Source of the DNA: Rufibacter latericius
GTDB lineage: Bacteria; Bacteroidota; Bacteroidia; Cytophagales; Hymenobacteraceae
Length of the DNA stretch: 64,000 nt
Assembly (NCBI RefSeq): GCF_003721515.1
Contig: NZ_RJJD01000001.1
Coordinates: 62,001-126,000, forward strand
Direction: 5' to 3'
The notes under the pieces are model-generated. The model searched no databases. It saw only the letters and a list, made by a program, of their open reading frames with translations, and was not told where the DNA came from. Position numbers and translations under genes: made by a program. Positions within the stretch are counted from its first letter, which is position 1; the number at the start of each line of letters is the position of its first letter. Of this stretch, positions 58,924-64,000 are shown piece after piece.

Positions 58924-59700
58924 TTAACTTGCCGGAGGCACCACTTTCGGTTTTCTGAAATCCAGGTTCTGGAAGAAGAAGAGCCGAAGGGCGTGGGTTT
59001 TGAAGTAGCGGTTGCCAGCTGCCTGTTGCTGAAAAACCTGCATGTAGCCTAATTGAGCATTCAACCCTTTGGTGAACTGATACCCCACACCCCCGAAAAG
59101 GCGGTTCTGGTCCAAATAGTTGTAGACGATCTCCTTCCCGAAATTCAGGTGTACCTCATCGTTCACCACCAGGAACGGAACGCCGGGGGCAATGGCATCG
59201 GAGGTGAGGGGCACCATCAGGGCAATCATGTACCGTACGCGGTAGTTGAAATGGTAGCCTTTCTGTAAGGCATCATTGGCGATGTTGCGGTTGAAGCGCT
59301 CTTCCAGCCGCACCCATTGGTTTGTCTGCAGCCGCTTGCTTTTCCCTGACCAGTTAATCTGTTGCCAAAACCGGTGCTCGGGCCGAATCGTTTCCTCTTC
59401 GGCCGAGGCAGGCCAATGGGCGGCATACGCGTACCCTACCGTGAACCGGGTATGATCTGAAATATGGTAGGTAATACCGGGCCGCACAATGGCGGTGGCC
59501 CAGCGGTCCATGAAATCGTTACGGCGGGCGTGTAGATCCAACCAAAGGGAAAATTTATCCGAGATCCGGGTTTGGTTGAAATAGCCCAACCACACCTGGT
59601 CACGATCTGTTATCTGTTTCTCGGGGGTTTGCGCCCACCCTTTCAGAGGCAAGCAAAAACAAGCCAACAGCAAAAGAAGGGGCGTAAATTTCTTCATCAT
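58924..59700 (-). CDS. DUF2490 outer-membrane protein
   Basis: 258-aa protein: signal peptide (LLLLLACFCLPLKGWAQ), then a pattern typical of DUF2490: QVWLGYFNQTRISDKFSLWL, DLHARRNDF, RPGITYHISDHTRFTVGYAY, EHRFWQQINW, RLEERFNRN and RLFGGVGYQFTKGLNAQLGY. The alternating strands suggest a 10-12-stranded outer-membrane barrel. Function unknown. It lies downstream of the TonB receptor but the receptor has its own terminator between them. Confidence 0.88.
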   Translation of the reverse strand: MMKKFTPLLLLLACFCLPLKGWAQTPEKQITDRDQVWLGYFNQTRISDKFSLWLDLHARRNDFMDRWATAIVRPGITYHISDHTRFTVGYAYAAHWPASAEEETIRPEHRFWQQINWSGKSKRLQTNQWVRLEERFNRNIANDALQKGYHFNYRVRYMIALMVPLTSDAIAPGVPFLVVNDEVHLNFGKEIVYNYLDQNRLFGGVGYQFTKGLNAQLGYMQVFQQQAAGNRYFKTHALRLFFFQNLDFRKPKVVPPAS

Positions 59701-59924: not shown

Positions 59925-62801
59925 TTATTTGGCTAGCAACCCATCAACCGTTAGGGCCACGTAGTAGAGTCCGCCAATGGTTGGCCCTGCGGCATACTGG
60001 ATGAAGCGCTGGTTGAAGATGTTGGTACCGCCGGTTTTGATGGTGATTTTGCTCTCGGGTACCCGGTAGGTAACCTGGGCATCTACGGTGCTATAAGCTG
60101 GTACTTTCCCGTTGGCCAGCGGACTCTCCCACAGGAATGATTCCTGCCAGCGAAACACCACATTAAAGCCAAGGTTCTTCAAAATCTCCCGGTTCCCGAT
60201 GGATACGTTAGTAATCCAGTTAGGCGTGTTGAAGGCCGTCACGAAGATGTCTTTTTCTTCGTTGGTTTTAATGGCGTTGTAGTTCACGTTCCCGGACAAG
60301 GTGAATTTCTGGTAAAAGTTGTAGGTAAGACCCAGCGAGGAGCCGTAGTTGTTGTACTTGTTTTTAGCGTTGGTGTACACGCGGTAGCGGGTCTGCTGCC
60401 CATTGCGGTTCGCCGCGAGCATGGCAACCACAGCTTCGTCTGTGCCTACCTGCACTGTATTGCTCTTAGGAACCGCTACTTCCACCTGACCCAGGAACCC
60501 GTCATACACGTTGGTATACGCATCAATGTCCAGCACCAGTTTATTGTCAAACAACACGCTCTTGTAGCCTACCTCAAACGAGTTGATCTGCTCTGGCCTG
60601 GTAGCGGATAGGCTGGTAATCTGCAGCACCTGCCGGTTCTTCAAAGCGGCTTCGTTGGCGGTGAGGCCGGCGGTCACGTCTTTGTTCACAGCCGCATTGA
60701 ATTCATTCACCGAGGCCAGCGTGTAGGAATTGTCCAGGTAACCCAGGCCCTCGTTGATGTAGGGCAAGCCCCCTACGCGGCGCACATTCCCGTTGTTCAC
60801 GTAAGACACAGCCTCAAAAAGAGCCGGGAACCGGAACCCGTTCTGGTAAGACACCCGGAAGTTGTGCGACTCCGACAAGGTATATACCGCCGCCACCCGG
60901 GGGTTCAACTTAGGATCGAACTCAGGGTTATAGTCTACCCGTAGCGACCCGAACAATTTTAATCTATCTGCCAGGAATGTCTTGGTCAACTGCGCAAACG
61001 CCCCAAATTTCTTGTAGTACACATTATTGCCGCCGGGCTGGGTACGCTGCTCAATAGGACGTGAGAAATCCACGAAGTTGTTGCCGTCTGGGATGACTTC
61101 GTACACGCGGGCATCGGCACCTACTAGTAGGTTGGCGAACTTGATCTGGTCAGCAAAATCCCACTGGGCATCTGTGTGGTACAGGCGGCTTTTCTGGGTG
61201 AGCAAGGCACCACCGGTGGCCGGGGCTCCCGCAATCACTTTGCCGTGATCCCAATTGTTGATGCCTCTGATGGTGTTCTTGAGCGCGTTGAACTCAGGAG
61301 TGCCGGGCTGTACCCGACCAGCATCGGCGGCCTGACGGGCCAGGAGCATGGCCGCGGCCAGATCGGTGCCGGCATCCAGTTGGGTTTGCAGGGCAGTTTT
61401 GTACTTAGCGCCCCACTCGCTGTTAGAGCCTCCGCTAGTAATGTCCAGGTTGTCTACCATAGGTTTCACGTTATACGAATCGCCGGTATTCTCCAGTGAA
61501 ACATAAGACCGCAGGAAGTAATTGGCGCCTTTCAGCTCCAGCCGATGGTTCTGAACCACCACGTTATCCAGCTGAATCTTGTTTCCACGCTGGAAAACCC
61601 CGTCCATTTTCCCGATTCGGTAGCCGTAGGAAAGCTCGGCGTTGTCGCTGAGGCGGTAGTGGAGAGACGCGTCGAATTTAAGGTTGTCTACCCGCGGGCT
61701 CACCACGTCTTTTTCCCAGTACCCGGTCCGGCGCACCAGAAAGGTCTGGTTCTTGCCGCCATACTGCACCCCACTGATGGTCACGGCATTGTTGTTTTCG
61801 TCACCATACTTGTTCCAGGCATCATACGCCGGGTTGTTGGCCCCGCTTAGTTCAGGGAATAAGGGGTTGGCGGTGTTCAGGTTGTTGGGGTTCTGGTCGG
61901 TGGCAGTATTAGAGCGCCAGTCGGTGCCGTTCATGTAGCTGGCGTTGACTTTGAAGGCGAAGTTGTCGTTCAAAGCTTTGGCATAACGCACCGCCACCTC
62001 AGAAAGGATGCTAGGCTCAGCGTCAATGCCGTCTACGTGGTTCACGCCGGTTTTCTGGTACACGCTCAAACCTTGGTACAGGAAAGGACTTTTGGTGATG
62101 AGGTTGGCCATGCCGTTGATGGCGTTCATGCCGTACAGCGCAGAGGCCGCACCCGGGGTAATTTCCACGCTTTCAATGTCCAGCTCGGTTGGCCCGATGG
62201 CATTTCCCAGCGGCACACCAAGGGTAGCGGCCTGCATGTCTACACCATCCACCAACTGCATGAACCGGAAGTTGTTAGGGATGTTGAAACCCCGCGTATT
62301 AGGCACCTTGAAGGTAAGGCTGCTGGTGGTCATCTGTACACCTTTCACGTTCTCCAAGGCGTCATAGAAACTGGGAGCAGGCGTTTCCTTGATGGCCCGA
62401 ATGTCTAGTTTCTCGATAGCCACCGGCGATTTCAGGATGCTTTCCTCTACCCTGGATGCCGTCACCACTACTTCTTTCCCCAGAAGGGTTTGGGTTACCA
62501 AGGCAATATCCAGACGGGAACCGGGTTCGGTGATGGCAAACTCCTGGGGTTGGAACCCTACCAAAGACACGACCAGCGTGAAAGGAAACTTCAGGCGGGT
62601 TTTAAGACTGAAACTCCCGTCCAGGTTGGTAGCGGTTCCGGTCACGGTGCCCCGCACGTACACGCTCACCCCGGGCAGCGGTTCTTTACTCGCCTGGTCG
62701 GTTACTCGGCCGCTGATCTCCACCAGGTTCGTTTCCTGGGCTTTCAGGGCAAAAACCGGAAAAGTGAATATAAGGTATATAAGTAGAATTCTGATTTTCA
62801 T
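59925..62801 (-). CDS. TonB-dependent receptor with CarboxypepD_reg-like domain
   Basis: 958-aa outer-membrane receptor from ATG 62801 (signal peptide IRILLIYLIFTFPVFALKAQ). A CarboxypepD_reg-like domain is at about 25-105 (VEISGRVTDQASKEPLPGVS), then the plug (about 115-240) with EVVVTASRVEESILKSPVAI, PNTRGFNIPNNFRFMQLVDG and GAASALYGMNAINGMANLIT, then a large barrel. It is not a SusC protein: the plug is that of siderophore/vitamin-type receptors with the same N-terminal extension. It has no partner lipoprotein gene. A polycysteine mini-ORF lies 45 bases upstream, suggesting control by cysteine or sulfur supply. Confidence 0.93.
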   Translation of the reverse strand: MKIRILLIYLIFTFPVFALKAQETNLVEISGRVTDQASKEPLPGVSVYVRGTVTGTATNLDGSFSLKTRLKFPFTLVVSLVGFQPQEFAITEPGSRLDIALVTQTLLGKEVVVTASRVEESILKSPVAIEKLDIRAIKETPAPSFYDALENVKGVQMTTSSLTFKVPNTRGFNIPNNFRFMQLVDGVDMQAATLGVPLGNAIGPTELDIESVEITPGAASALYGMNAINGMANLITKSPFLYQGLSVYQKTGVNHVDGIDAEPSILSEVAVRYAKALNDNFAFKVNASYMNGTDWRSNTATDQNPNNLNTANPLFPELSGANNPAYDAWNKYGDENNNAVTISGVQYGGKNQTFLVRRTGYWEKDVVSPRVDNLKFDASLHYRLSDNAELSYGYRIGKMDGVFQRGNKIQLDNVVVQNHRLELKGANYFLRSYVSLENTGDSYNVKPMVDNLDITSGGSNSEWGAKYKTALQTQLDAGTDLAAAMLLARQAADAGRVQPGTPEFNALKNTIRGINNWDHGKVIAGAPATGGALLTQKSRLYHTDAQWDFADQIKFANLLVGADARVYEVIPDGNNFVDFSRPIEQRTQPGGNNVYYKKFGAFAQLTKTFLADRLKLFGSLRVDYNPEFDPKLNPRVAAVYTLSESHNFRVSYQNGFRFPALFEAVSYVNNGNVRRVGGLPYINEGLGYLDNSYTLASVNEFNAAVNKDVTAGLTANEAALKNRQVLQITSLSATRPEQINSFEVGYKSVLFDNKLVLDIDAYTNVYDGFLGQVEVAVPKSNTVQVGTDEAVVAMLAANRNGQQTRYRVYTNAKNKYNNYGSSLGLTYNFYQKFTLSGNVNYNAIKTNEEKDIFVTAFNTPNWITNVSIGNREILKNLGFNVVFRWQESFLWESPLANGKVPAYSTVDAQVTYRVPESKITIKTGGTNIFNQRFIQYAAGPTIGGLYYVALTVDGLLAK

Positions 62802-62846
62802 ATAGTTGTAAGTAAAAGAAATAAACAAGATAGGCGAAGTGGTGGG

Positions 62847-62888
62847 TTAGCGACAACAACAGCAGGGTTGCGTGAGGGAGCCGCACAT
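62847..62888 (-). CDS. 13-aa polycysteine leader peptide (candidate uORF)
   Basis: ATG TGC GGC TCC CTC ACG, then CAA CCC TGC TGT TGT TGT CGC TAA, encoding M-C-G-S-L-T-Q-P-C-C-C-C-R: five Cys in 13 residues, four in a row just before a single Arg and stop. It ends 45 bases before the TonB receptor ATG on the same strand. Runs of the regulated amino acid's codons near the end of a short leader ORF are the mark of translational attenuation; polycysteine uORFs are described upstream of cysteine-related genes in other bacteria. No sequence evidence for translation beyond this. Confidence 0.6.
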   Translation of the reverse strand: MCGSLTQPCCCCR

Positions 62889-62901
62889 TCGTGTTCTTTG
62901 G

Positions 62902-63229
62902 TTAGCTTTTACTACAGCTGATTTCATCTTCTTGTACTTTGTTTTTGTCTTGTCTGAGATTCAAGGGGCGGAACTCCCGCCAACCGGCCTTCACGTCATC
63001 TTCAAGAGTTGTAAAAACTCTGCTACTTAGCGTCCGATGAAAAGGAAGGCTTCTGAAAGAACCGGCAGAAAGAGCAGATACAAGCCCTTACCCTTTTTCT
63101 GCCTTCCGCCGGTTCAAGCCCAGGTCACCGTAGTTTATGGGGTACTTTCAAAAACTAGCCTTAAAACAACCCTCCCCTACTCTTGGCCCTACTCCTTGCC
63201 GGAGGATCATCATTTTCCTTTTCATCTTG
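62902..63229. other. Possible long leader of the TonB receptor gene
   Basis: No TAnnTTTG box found on the minus strand. Structures seen: an imperfect stem GAACCGGCAGAAA (63059-63071) with TTTCTGCC...GGTTC (63096-63115), and a decayed hairpin-family copy at 63141-63168. The tRNA-like gene follows upstream. Confidence 0.35.
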
Positions 63230-63300
63230 CGGTCACGGGCGGATTCGAACCGCCGTAAAAGACTTTGCTGGTCTTTGCTTTGCCTCTCAGCCACACGACC
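63230..63300 (-). tRNA. tRNA-Cys(GCA)-like gene with altered anticodon loop
   Basis: 71 bases fold as a full cloverleaf on the minus strand: acceptor GGTCGTG/CGTGACC (two G-U pairs), D-arm GCT/AGC, anticodon stem AAGAC/GTCTT, variable TTAC, T-arm GGCGG-TTCGAAT-CCGCC. The anticodon loop reads CAGCAAA, so the anticodon is GCA (Cys), and the size and D-arm fit tRNA-Cys. Two unusual points: position 33 is A instead of the near-universal U, and the base after the acceptor stem (73) is G, where tRNA-Cys has U. CCA is not encoded. It could be a degenerate copy or a specialised tRNA. Confidence 0.7.
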
Positions 63301-63545
63301 TAATTCTTCTATTCCTGCTTCCTTCAGCATGCCCTGGAAGAAGCACTGCCTTTCTTTTTAGCAAACCTTTCCGGGAACAGAAGCTACATAGATACTCTTA
63401 ATCCCTATAGAACTAGTAGACAAATAGAAGATTTTAGATCGAGACAGCCAAATATTTACCTCTAAATTTTGATTATTTTTTTACTAATCCCTGATTTCCA
63501 GGCATTTTCACATCCACAAAGGCTTCCTGTTTTCAATTCCTTATC
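63301..63545. other. Gene-free region between chromate transporter and tRNA-like gene
   Basis: AT-rich toward 63400-63500; no gene. CTGTTTTCA at 63528-63536 and TGAAAACAG at 63558-63566 form an inverted repeat around the end of the chromate transporter gene, which may act as its terminator. Confidence 0.35.
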
Positions 63546-64000
63546 CTAAAAGGTGGCTGAAAACAGGAGATAATGCGCTAATCCAGCCATGGCACTGATG
63601 CCAATCCAGAGCATCATGCCCACTTTGAATCGGTACATGGCCAGAAAGGAAATCACCATCCACACCAAGGCAAAGTAATCTAAACGGCTAAGGGAAAGCC
63701 CCTCGGGGAAGAGTACCGCAACTCCAAAGTAGACGGTCAGATTCAGCACCACCCCTACTACGGCGGCGGTCACTACGCCCAGAATGGATTTGACGGCCGC
63801 ATTGCCACGGGTGCGTTCAATAAGGGGCGCTCCGGCCAGAATAAAGAAAAAGCAGGGCAAAAAAGTGTAGAAGGTGGTGGTAAACAGACCCAGCGCCCCC
63901 ATGGCCAGCGACCCGCCGTAATGGTTGAACCCCGCCATAAATCCTACAAACGTCAGTACCATGATGAGCGGACCAGGCGTGGTCTCGCCCAAGGCCAGTC
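63546..64000 (-). CDS. Chromate transporter (ChrA family), partial at window end
   Basis: C-terminal 151 residues of a ChrA-type CHR transporter; the coding frame continues past the window edge (upstream residues Ala-Leu read through 63993-63998). The CHR signature LGETTPGPLIMVLTFVGFMA is followed by FLPCFFFILAGAPLIERTRG and ending helices (VVGVVLNLTVYFGVAVLF; MLWIGISAMAGLAHYLLF). Exports chromate (or sulfate-like oxyanions). The start and N-terminal half are outside this window. Confidence 0.9.
   Translation of the reverse strand, partial: LALGETTPGPLIMVLTFVGFMAGFNHYGGSLAMGALGLFTTTFYTFLPCFFFILAGAPLIERTRGNAAVKSILGVVTAAVVGVVLNLTVYFGVAVLFPEGLSLSRLDYFALVWMVISFLAMYRFKVGMMLWIGISAMAGLAHYLLFSATF

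What the first reader, a model, noticed from the sequence alone, without database searches (positions are those of the whole stretch)
62847..62888. Polycysteine mini-ORF directly upstream of a TonB-dependent receptor
Seen: a 14-codon frame with TGC TGT TGT TGT just before its end, 45 bases ahead of the receptor ATG, same strand. Known: leader ORFs with tandem codons of one amino acid regulate downstream genes by ribosome stalling, and polycysteine uORFs have been reported for cysteine/sulfur genes in other phyla. Inference: the receptor may take up a cysteine-derived, sulfur or metal compound and be controlled by charged tRNA-Cys. A Cys-controlled uptake receptor in Bacteroidota would be new to me.
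Basis: partly seen in the sequence, partly recalled or inferred. Interest (0 to 1): 0.8.

Follow-up and report, generated by a model that had tools for sequence, protein, structure and literature searches.

The report
Cysteine-codon leader before sulfur-uptake receptor
A tiny reading frame ending in four cysteine codons sits in front of an outer-membrane uptake gene in a Rufibacter bacterium, and the same kind of frame recurs ahead of sulfur-acquisition genes in related bacteria, sometimes right behind a known SAM-sensing RNA switch, so these bacteria probably judge their cysteine supply by whether a ribosome can read a run of cysteine codons.

Summary
An in-frame upstream ATG makes a 26-aa leader, MKSAVVKANQRTRMCGSLTQPCCCCR*. 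Among 98 upstream regions of receptor orthologs, 25 hold a short ATG frame with CCC; shuffles average 0.1 (never above 2 in 200 rounds), the reverse strand has none. Flanks vary. But 41 of 80 named orthologs show no CC frame. In 54 of 80 the receptor lies within 5 kb of assimilatory sulfur genes. The same genome has such leaders before cysHDN-cobA-cysJI, metY-metX and a SusC receptor; the last two follow a SAM riboswitch. In the order, SAM riboswitches before metY carry a CCC leader in 7 of 10 loci, those before metH in 0 of 10; a phylum-wide sample has none in 30. Best reading: a cysteine-responsive, ribosome-stalling leader regulon in part of the Bacteroidota. How stalling reaches the gene is unsolved; no terminator or shared structure was found. 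A second, non-canonical tRNA-Cys gene lies upstream; tRNA-Cys-like genes lie within 5 kb of this receptor in 18 of 80 loci, always on its strand. Nothing was measured in vivo. Polycysteine leaders are known in Actinobacteria: a new variant of a known kind.

The parts
62847..62927 (-). 26-aa leader ORF MKSAVVKANQRTRMCGSLTQPCCCCR* (the finding's 62847-62888 is its C-terminal part, from an internal in-frame ATG)
   Evidence: codons written beside 7 relatives
62853..62864 (-). run of four Cys codons TGC TGT TGT TGT, followed by CGC and TAA
   Evidence: Cys runs recur in orthologs with TGC/TGT exchanges
62802..62846 (-). 45-base pyrimidine-rich stretch between leader stop and receptor start; no terminator-like site found
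59925..62801 (-). TonB-dependent receptor, 958 aa (CarboxypepD_reg-like, Plug and barrel domains)
63229..63300 (-). second tRNA-Cys(GCA)-like gene, A33 instead of U33, G73, no encoded CCA; 86-93% mean pairwise identity over 9 sequences of the clade while the following 280 bases fall to 14-60%
58924..59700 (-). DUF2490 gene downstream of the receptor; a neighbour in 23 of 80 named orthologous loci; link to the system unproven

Best explanation
The mini-ORF is the C-terminal part of a translated leader whose run of cysteine codons senses charged tRNA-Cys. When cysteine is short, the ribosome halts on the Cys codons, and this raises expression of the receptor, which probably takes up a sulfur source. 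With cysteine plentiful, the ribosome reads through to the stop codon and expression stays low. The same device precedes other sulfur-acquisition operons in this genome and relatives; at several of them a SAM riboswitch ends 7-14 bases before the leader's ATG, so SAM probably gates translation of the leader and cysteine gates its completion. Shown by sequence comparison: recurrence of the Cys run, sulfur context, stacking on SAM riboswitches. Inferred: translation, stalling, direction of the response, the receptor's ligand. Unsolved: how stalling is passed on (translational coupling or Rho-dependent termination are both open).
For: 98 distinct receptor upstream regions: short ATG frame with CC in 45, CCC in 25, CCCC in 11; shuffle means 3.3, 0.1, 0 (highest of 200 rounds 8, 2, 0); for CCC the next amino acid is Leu with 11; reverse strand has no CCC. 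In the 80 named loci read whole on both strands, 20 of the 36 short frames with CCC near their end are the receptor's leader. Flanks differ, Cys codons vary synonymously. First Cys codon to receptor ATG is 57-71 nt in 16 of 22 cases. 54 of 80 named orthologs have assimilatory sulfur genes within 5 kb, 37 of 80 if CysG/TauE and CobA are not counted. Same genome: leaders before cysHDN-cobA-cysJI (MVYSSYIKRMRFCCCSPCCCCC*), metY-metX and SusC. SAM riboswitch RF00162 just upstream of the metY and SusC leaders and in 9 of 16 further leader-bearing sources given; leader ATG 7-14 nt after the aptamer in 9 of 11 loci with both. SAM riboswitches in the order: metY 7 of 10 with a CCC leader, metH 0 of 10 (Fisher P 0.003, which treats loci as independent although two pairs of the metY loci share a genus).
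Against: 41 of 80 named orthologs show no CC-bearing short ATG frame by my rule (one of them, L192, has only 15 bases upstream). A phylum-wide sample of SAM riboswitches shows no CCC leader in 30 loci, 21 of them metY. cysH in the order: only 3 of 30 loci read have a CCC leader. 16 of 36 CCC frames are not the receptor's: 3 before PhyH-like genes, 1 before another gene, 3 with no gene after them, 9 inside longer frames. In the riboswitch sample of the order, the leader starts 9-14 nt after the aptamer in 5 of 9 CCC cases and 44, 62, 69 and 204 nt after it in the others. No terminator-like site in the window stretch. Masking a stalled ribosome does not ease opening of the receptor start in the fold model (mean 5.5 against 5.1 kcal/mol over 22), and pairing of the Cys tract downstream is not general (mean z -0.5 over 31; two metY cases at -4.6 stand out). 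The Rufibacter receptor loci themselves have no sulfur-gene neighbours. No expression data.
Confidence: 0.8

Rival explanations
1. The nascent Cys-rich peptide binds a metal (copper, zinc, iron) and so controls the receptor, like CruR/CutF.
For: A metal-sensing uORF ahead of a TonB-dependent transporter is known (CruR; PMC9973294, passages). Cys clusters bind metals (general knowledge), and a CCCC run also satisfies a CXXC spacing.
Against: Similar leaders stand before cysH, metY and an OSHS-like gene, not metal genes; neighbours of the receptor are sulfur genes in 54 of 80 loci; the riboswitch stacked on such leaders senses SAM.
Confidence: 0.07
2. The peptide itself is the product: a small Cys-rich metallophore, modified peptide or carrier that the receptor handles.
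For: The N-terminus is partly kept (MKPDV-like) in the Rufibacter clade.
Against: Outside that clade flanks and lengths vary freely, down to MMLKRCCC*; no maturation enzyme was among the neighbour families that I labelled (not a full annotation); such leaders also precede biosynthetic operons.
Confidence: 0.04
3. The leader only helps re-initiation at the downstream gene and does not sense cysteine.
For: Short, fairly constant distance to the receptor start.
Against: Re-initiation does not need Cys codons; Cys stands out from the other amino acids for runs of three, and such leaders are tied to sulfur genes.
Confidence: 0.05
4. Chance frame in an intergenic region.
For: TGYx4 is common in this genome (88 matches), mostly without a short ATG frame; CCC frames not tied to the receptor occur in the named loci too.
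Against: Recurrence at the same place over genera and families, and the shuffles.
Confidence: 0.02

Closest known systems
Polycysteine leaders of actinobacterial cys operons (Seliverstov 2005, PMC1262725, abstract and passages seen; Canestrari 2020, doi 10.1111/mmi.14498, not held: its title and citing passages seen in PMC9094748, and PMC13236596; the rest recalled)
   Same: Short ORFs with runs of Cys codons near the stop, before sulfur genes, no conserved terminator hairpin; the 2020 title calls them cysteine-responsive attenuators in mycobacteria.
   Different: Other phylum; there leaderless transcripts; here also before TonB-dependent receptors, at several loci stacked on SAM riboswitches, once two leaders in tandem, and with tRNA-Cys-like genes near the receptor.
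SAM-I riboswitch (S box, RF00162)
   Same: Family members above the gathering score directly before several leaders.
   Different: In those loci the leader's start codon follows the aptamer before that of the enzyme gene; none before the window's own receptor.
CruR/CutF-type uORFs (PMC9973294, passages seen)
   Same: Cys-bearing upstream ORF; for CruR ahead of a TonB-dependent transporter gene.
   Different: Copper sensing and a proline-rich stalling-like motif according to the passages; here Cys runs before sulfur genes.
Leader-peptide attenuation in Flavobacterium psychrophilum (PMC9723704, passages seen)
   Same: Leader-peptide attenuation proposed in Bacteroidetes before amino-acid operons.
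   Different: No cysteine case and no receptor in the passages seen; its supplements were not read.
selC* tRNA-Cys (PMC7609411, passages seen)
   Same: A second tRNA-Cys with unusual features.
   Different: selC* has an 8/4 fold; the tRNAs here align to an ordinary cloverleaf with an odd position 33, 73 or 1:72.

Membership tests
Polycysteine leader (actinobacterial type) | short ORF with tandem Cys codons near its stop | tested here: met
Polycysteine leader (actinobacterial type) | stands before sulfur or cysteine genes | tested here: met
   for cysH and metY, by eye for OSHS; for the receptor only by neighbourhood in other genera
Polycysteine leader (actinobacterial type) | leaderless transcript (start codon at the 5' end) | not testable with these tools
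   no transcript data; where a SAM riboswitch precedes the leader in the same transcript it cannot be leaderless
Polycysteine leader (actinobacterial type) | expression rises when cysteine is limiting, dependent on the Cys codons | not testable with these tools
   needs an experiment
Classical transcription attenuator (trp/his type) | terminator and antiterminator hairpins between leader and gene | tested here: not met
   0 terminator-like sites in 62750-63500; the stretch after the leader stop has a fold energy of 0
SAM-I riboswitch (RF00162) | match to the family before the gene | tested here: not met
   none before the window's receptor; met at own metY and SusC and in 9 of 16 further sources
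CruR/CutF metal-sensing uORF | context of metal-homeostasis genes | tested here: not met
   sulfur genes downstream or nearby; a chromate-transporter gene is near in Rufibacter
CruR/CutF metal-sensing uORF | metal-type Cys motif | tested here: inconclusive
   CCCC also contains a CXXC spacing; many leaders have CCC or CC only
tRNA-Cys | cloverleaf with GCA anticodon | tested here: met
   ARAGORN, Rfam tRNA 54.3 bits
tRNA-Cys | U33 and discriminator U73 as in the canonical copy | tested here: not met
   A33 and G73 in the window; the other copy of the genome has U33 and U73

The most novel reading that the evidence does not exclude
Cytophagales and relatives run a cysteine-starvation regulon with three RNA parts: a SAM riboswitch that gates translation of a leader, a polycysteine leader that reads charged tRNA-Cys, and a non-canonical second tRNA-Cys made from or beside the receptor operon that feeds back on the sensor, for example by titrating cysteinyl-tRNA synthetase or by being charged only at high cysteine. 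The outer-membrane receptor would then be the uptake arm of a circuit in which a tRNA variant sets the threshold.
Probability: 0.22. Interest if true: 0.92.

Novelty: new variant of a known kind. Interest (0 to 1): 0.72.

Why it matters
It would extend amino-acid-sensing polycysteine leaders to Bacteroidota and to nutrient uptake through the outer membrane, show a riboswitch and a leader peptide wired in series for two linked metabolites (SAM and cysteine), and give a handle on the ligands of TonB-dependent receptors of unknown substrate: the leader names the element that is short. The receptor-linked tRNA-Cys variants make an odd tRNA function directly testable.

Tried and rejected
Start-codon sequestration relieved by stalling: tested by folding with a ribosome mask on 22 loci, no effect. 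Pairing of the Cys tract with a downstream segment: not general. Rho-type pyrimidine-rich gap: Rufibacter gaps are pyrimidine-rich, but over 21 leaders the mean is 0.57 against 0.52 for 244 other genes, too weak to use. A shared CGAATG-like motif before the Cys run: only 5 of 21 receptor leaders, dropped. nifS leader MNRTCFTCCCCKK*: kept as doubtful, relatives not checked. L381 (SAM riboswitch with a CCC frame 204 bases on): counted as CCC before an 'other' gene, thought doubtful.

The reversed-pattern control is lower but differs in codon content, so I give no enrichment. Gene clusters are named from one scanned member each, and no background rate for such neighbours was measured. In one search MetX, CysJ and NifS matched below their curated cut-offs. 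Protein structure prediction was not used; the receptor's only sequence matches among solved structures are weak (3 matches, best E 6.5e-11).

Full report
Observation. The frame, its coordinates, the Cys run and the 45-base gap to the receptor ATG are as described. An in-frame ATG further upstream gives MKSAVVKANQRTRMCGSLTQPCCCCR* at 62927-62847. The upstream ATG and an internal one are both present in the 7 Rufibacter/Sabulibacter relatives written out by codon, so the true start is open. The window's genome is a Rufibacter by its nearest named relatives (an inference).

Conservation. In 60 family genomes the receptor query matched in 39 at E 1e-100 or better, paralogs included, and the 30 loci given were read. 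A scan of named genomes found 454 encoding stretches and kept the best 80. With a plain rule (ATG frame of up to 75 letters counting the stop, within 400 bases), 21 of 80 have CCC, a further 18 have CC and 41 have none, one of the 41 with only 15 bases upstream. In 98 distinct upstream regions of 250 bases (named and unnamed together, the window's own included, exact duplicates dropped), CCC occurs in 25, CC in 45, CCCC in 11; 200 rounds of dinucleotide shuffles give means of 0.1, 3.3 and 0 (maxima 2, 8, 0). On the reverse strand no region has CCC. Among other amino acids the best for runs of three is Leu with 11. Regions are related by descent, so these are not independent trials. Read whole on both strands, the 80 loci hold 36 short frames with CCC near their end; 20 are the receptor's leader, 3 precede PhyH-like genes, 1 another gene, 3 no gene, 9 lie inside longer frames. 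Flanks change freely (MMLKRCCC*, MSEYKNLNVQNECCCCR*, MKTIVLNTRPIYPSASTRLPSCCCCCA*), and Cys codons exchange TGC and TGT. The first Cys codon of the run lies 57-71 bases before the receptor ATG in 16 of 22 cases.

Sulfur context. In 54 of 80 named loci a neighbour within 5 kb falls in a cluster named CysG/TauE, CysI, CysJ, CobA-like, CysN, CysD, CysH, CysK or O-succinylhomoserine sulfhydrylase; 37 of 80 without CysG/TauE and CobA; an Rrf2-family regulator in 12. Cluster names rest on one scanned member each. The seven Rufibacter/Sabulibacter loci lack these neighbours and have chromate-transporter genes instead. No background rate was measured.

A set of leaders in one genome. All 88 TGYx4 matches of the genome were listed and their places read. 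Leaders precede cysH-cysD-cysN-cobA-cysJ-cysI (MVYSSYIKRMRFCCCSPCCCCC*), metY followed by a metX-like gene, a SusC-type receptor with two leaders in tandem, and perhaps a nifS-like gene. That these are operons is inferred from strand and order. The metY and first SusC leaders start 9 and 7 bases after a SAM riboswitch aptamer. Of 16 further sources with a CCC leader given to Rfam, 9 have a SAM riboswitch. Over the 11 loci with both, the first leader starts 7-14 bases after the aptamer in 9, 44 bases after it in one, and overlaps it by 2 bases in one.

Test on SAM riboswitches picked without regard to leaders. In the order, 30 loci were given for 65 matches (the best of each of 29 genomes and one more). 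Genes were classed by short protein patterns: metY 10, of which 7 CCC, 1 CC, 2 none; metH 10, none; the rest 10, of which 2 CCC and 1 CC. The CCC leaders start 9-14 nt after the aptamer in 5 of 9, and 44, 62, 69 and 204 nt after it in the others. Two of these nine (L400, L398) are the same sites as L364 and L337 above. In the phylum, 30 loci were given for 80 listed matches, the best-scoring ones: none with CCC, 1 with CC, although 21 are metY. So the leader is a feature of part of the phylum (Cytophagales here and, by the names of the receptor loci, Pedobacter and Chitinophagaceae relatives), and within the order it follows the gene that uses sulfide, not the methyl-transfer enzyme. Limit: for cysH in the order only 3 of 30 loci read have a CCC leader; whether cysH is first in its operon there was not tested.

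Mechanism. Shown: frames, recurrence, context. Inferred from known leader systems: translation, slowing at Cys codons when Cys-tRNA is scarce, and induction. Not found: a terminator, a sequestering structure eased by a stalled ribosome, or general pairing of the Cys tract downstream (two metY loci are exceptions). This matches what was written of actinobacterial cys leaders: no conserved terminators, Rho proposed as one possibility (PMC1262725, passages).

The tRNA. A tRNA-Cys(GCA) lies at 63300-63229 on the receptor strand. It has A33 and G73 where the other copy of the genome has U33 and U73. Over 9 sequences of the clade the tRNA-like stretch keeps 86-93% mean pairwise identity, while the following blocks up to the leader fall to 14-60%. 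Of the 80 named loci, 18 hold a tRNA-Cys-like gene (one with a GAA anticodon), all on the receptor strand, in eight groups (Sabulibacter counted with Rufibacter); the only other tRNA is one tRNA-Leu. Distances vary: 9 and 11 bases after the receptor stop in L146 (Segetibacter) and L195 (Flavisolibacter), 229-499 bases before the start in Rufibacter and one Pedobacter, and 0.7-2.8 kb with other frames between in five loci. Linked copies: N33 is not U in all Rufibacter/Sabulibacter copies, eight others have an A1.G72 mismatch and one C1.A72, while L142 pairs and L197 looks ordinary but for A73; unlinked second copies with a mismatch exist too (L245, L246, L247). Of 20 genomes that I chose, 13 of them with a linked copy, 18 have at least two hits of 70 bits or more. 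Function unknown; I rate a role in the circuit as possible, not shown.

Novelty. Polycysteine leaders are known in Actinobacteria and SAM riboswitches are known; new here, as far as the listed rows of the held-paper searches go, are the phylum, the likely control of outer-membrane receptors, the series arrangement behind a SAM riboswitch, and the receptor-linked tRNA-Cys variants.

Noticed in passing
window 63229-63300 (-); L146, L195, L190, L141 and others: Non-canonical second tRNA-Cys genes within 5 kb of the receptor in 18 of 80 named loci, all on its strand.
   Followed up: partly
L248:6001-6075 (-), Hufsiella: A third tRNA-Cys lies between a SusC-like gene (named by eye) and a RimK-like ATP-grasp gene, followed by a luciferase-like monooxygenase gene, same strand; looks like an organosulfur operon.
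   Followed up: no
upstream of the receptor in L141, L142, L143, L147, L148, L168, L170, L188, L190, L193, L007, L008: TCTATAGA, often as a half-palindrome like ATTTGTCTA-n4-ATCTATAGAC, in 12 of 98 upstream regions, at 170-181 bases before the start in 8 of the 12; possible operator of the Rrf2-family regulator. No shuffle control was run.
   Followed up: no
L258:3184-3607 (+), own genome: SAM riboswitch followed by two tandem polycysteine leaders ahead of a SusC receptor.
   Followed up: partly
L368, L392: ATP-grasp-like gene (named by eye from its likeness to the L248 gene) behind a SAM riboswitch and a CCCCC leader in two genomes of the family; function unknown.
   Followed up: no
L157, L164, L165: PhyH-like dioxygenase gene (Pfam run on L157 only) behind a CCC leader, in L157 and L165 also behind a SAM riboswitch; possible sulfonate use.
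   Followed up: no
window 63546-63998 (-): Chromate-transporter gene beside the tRNA; chromate resembles sulfate (ChrA cluster in 10 of 80 loci).
   Followed up: no
L154:3085-4599 and relatives: Fusion of the siroheme-synthase N-terminal domain with a TauE-type exporter domain in one frame.
   Followed up: no
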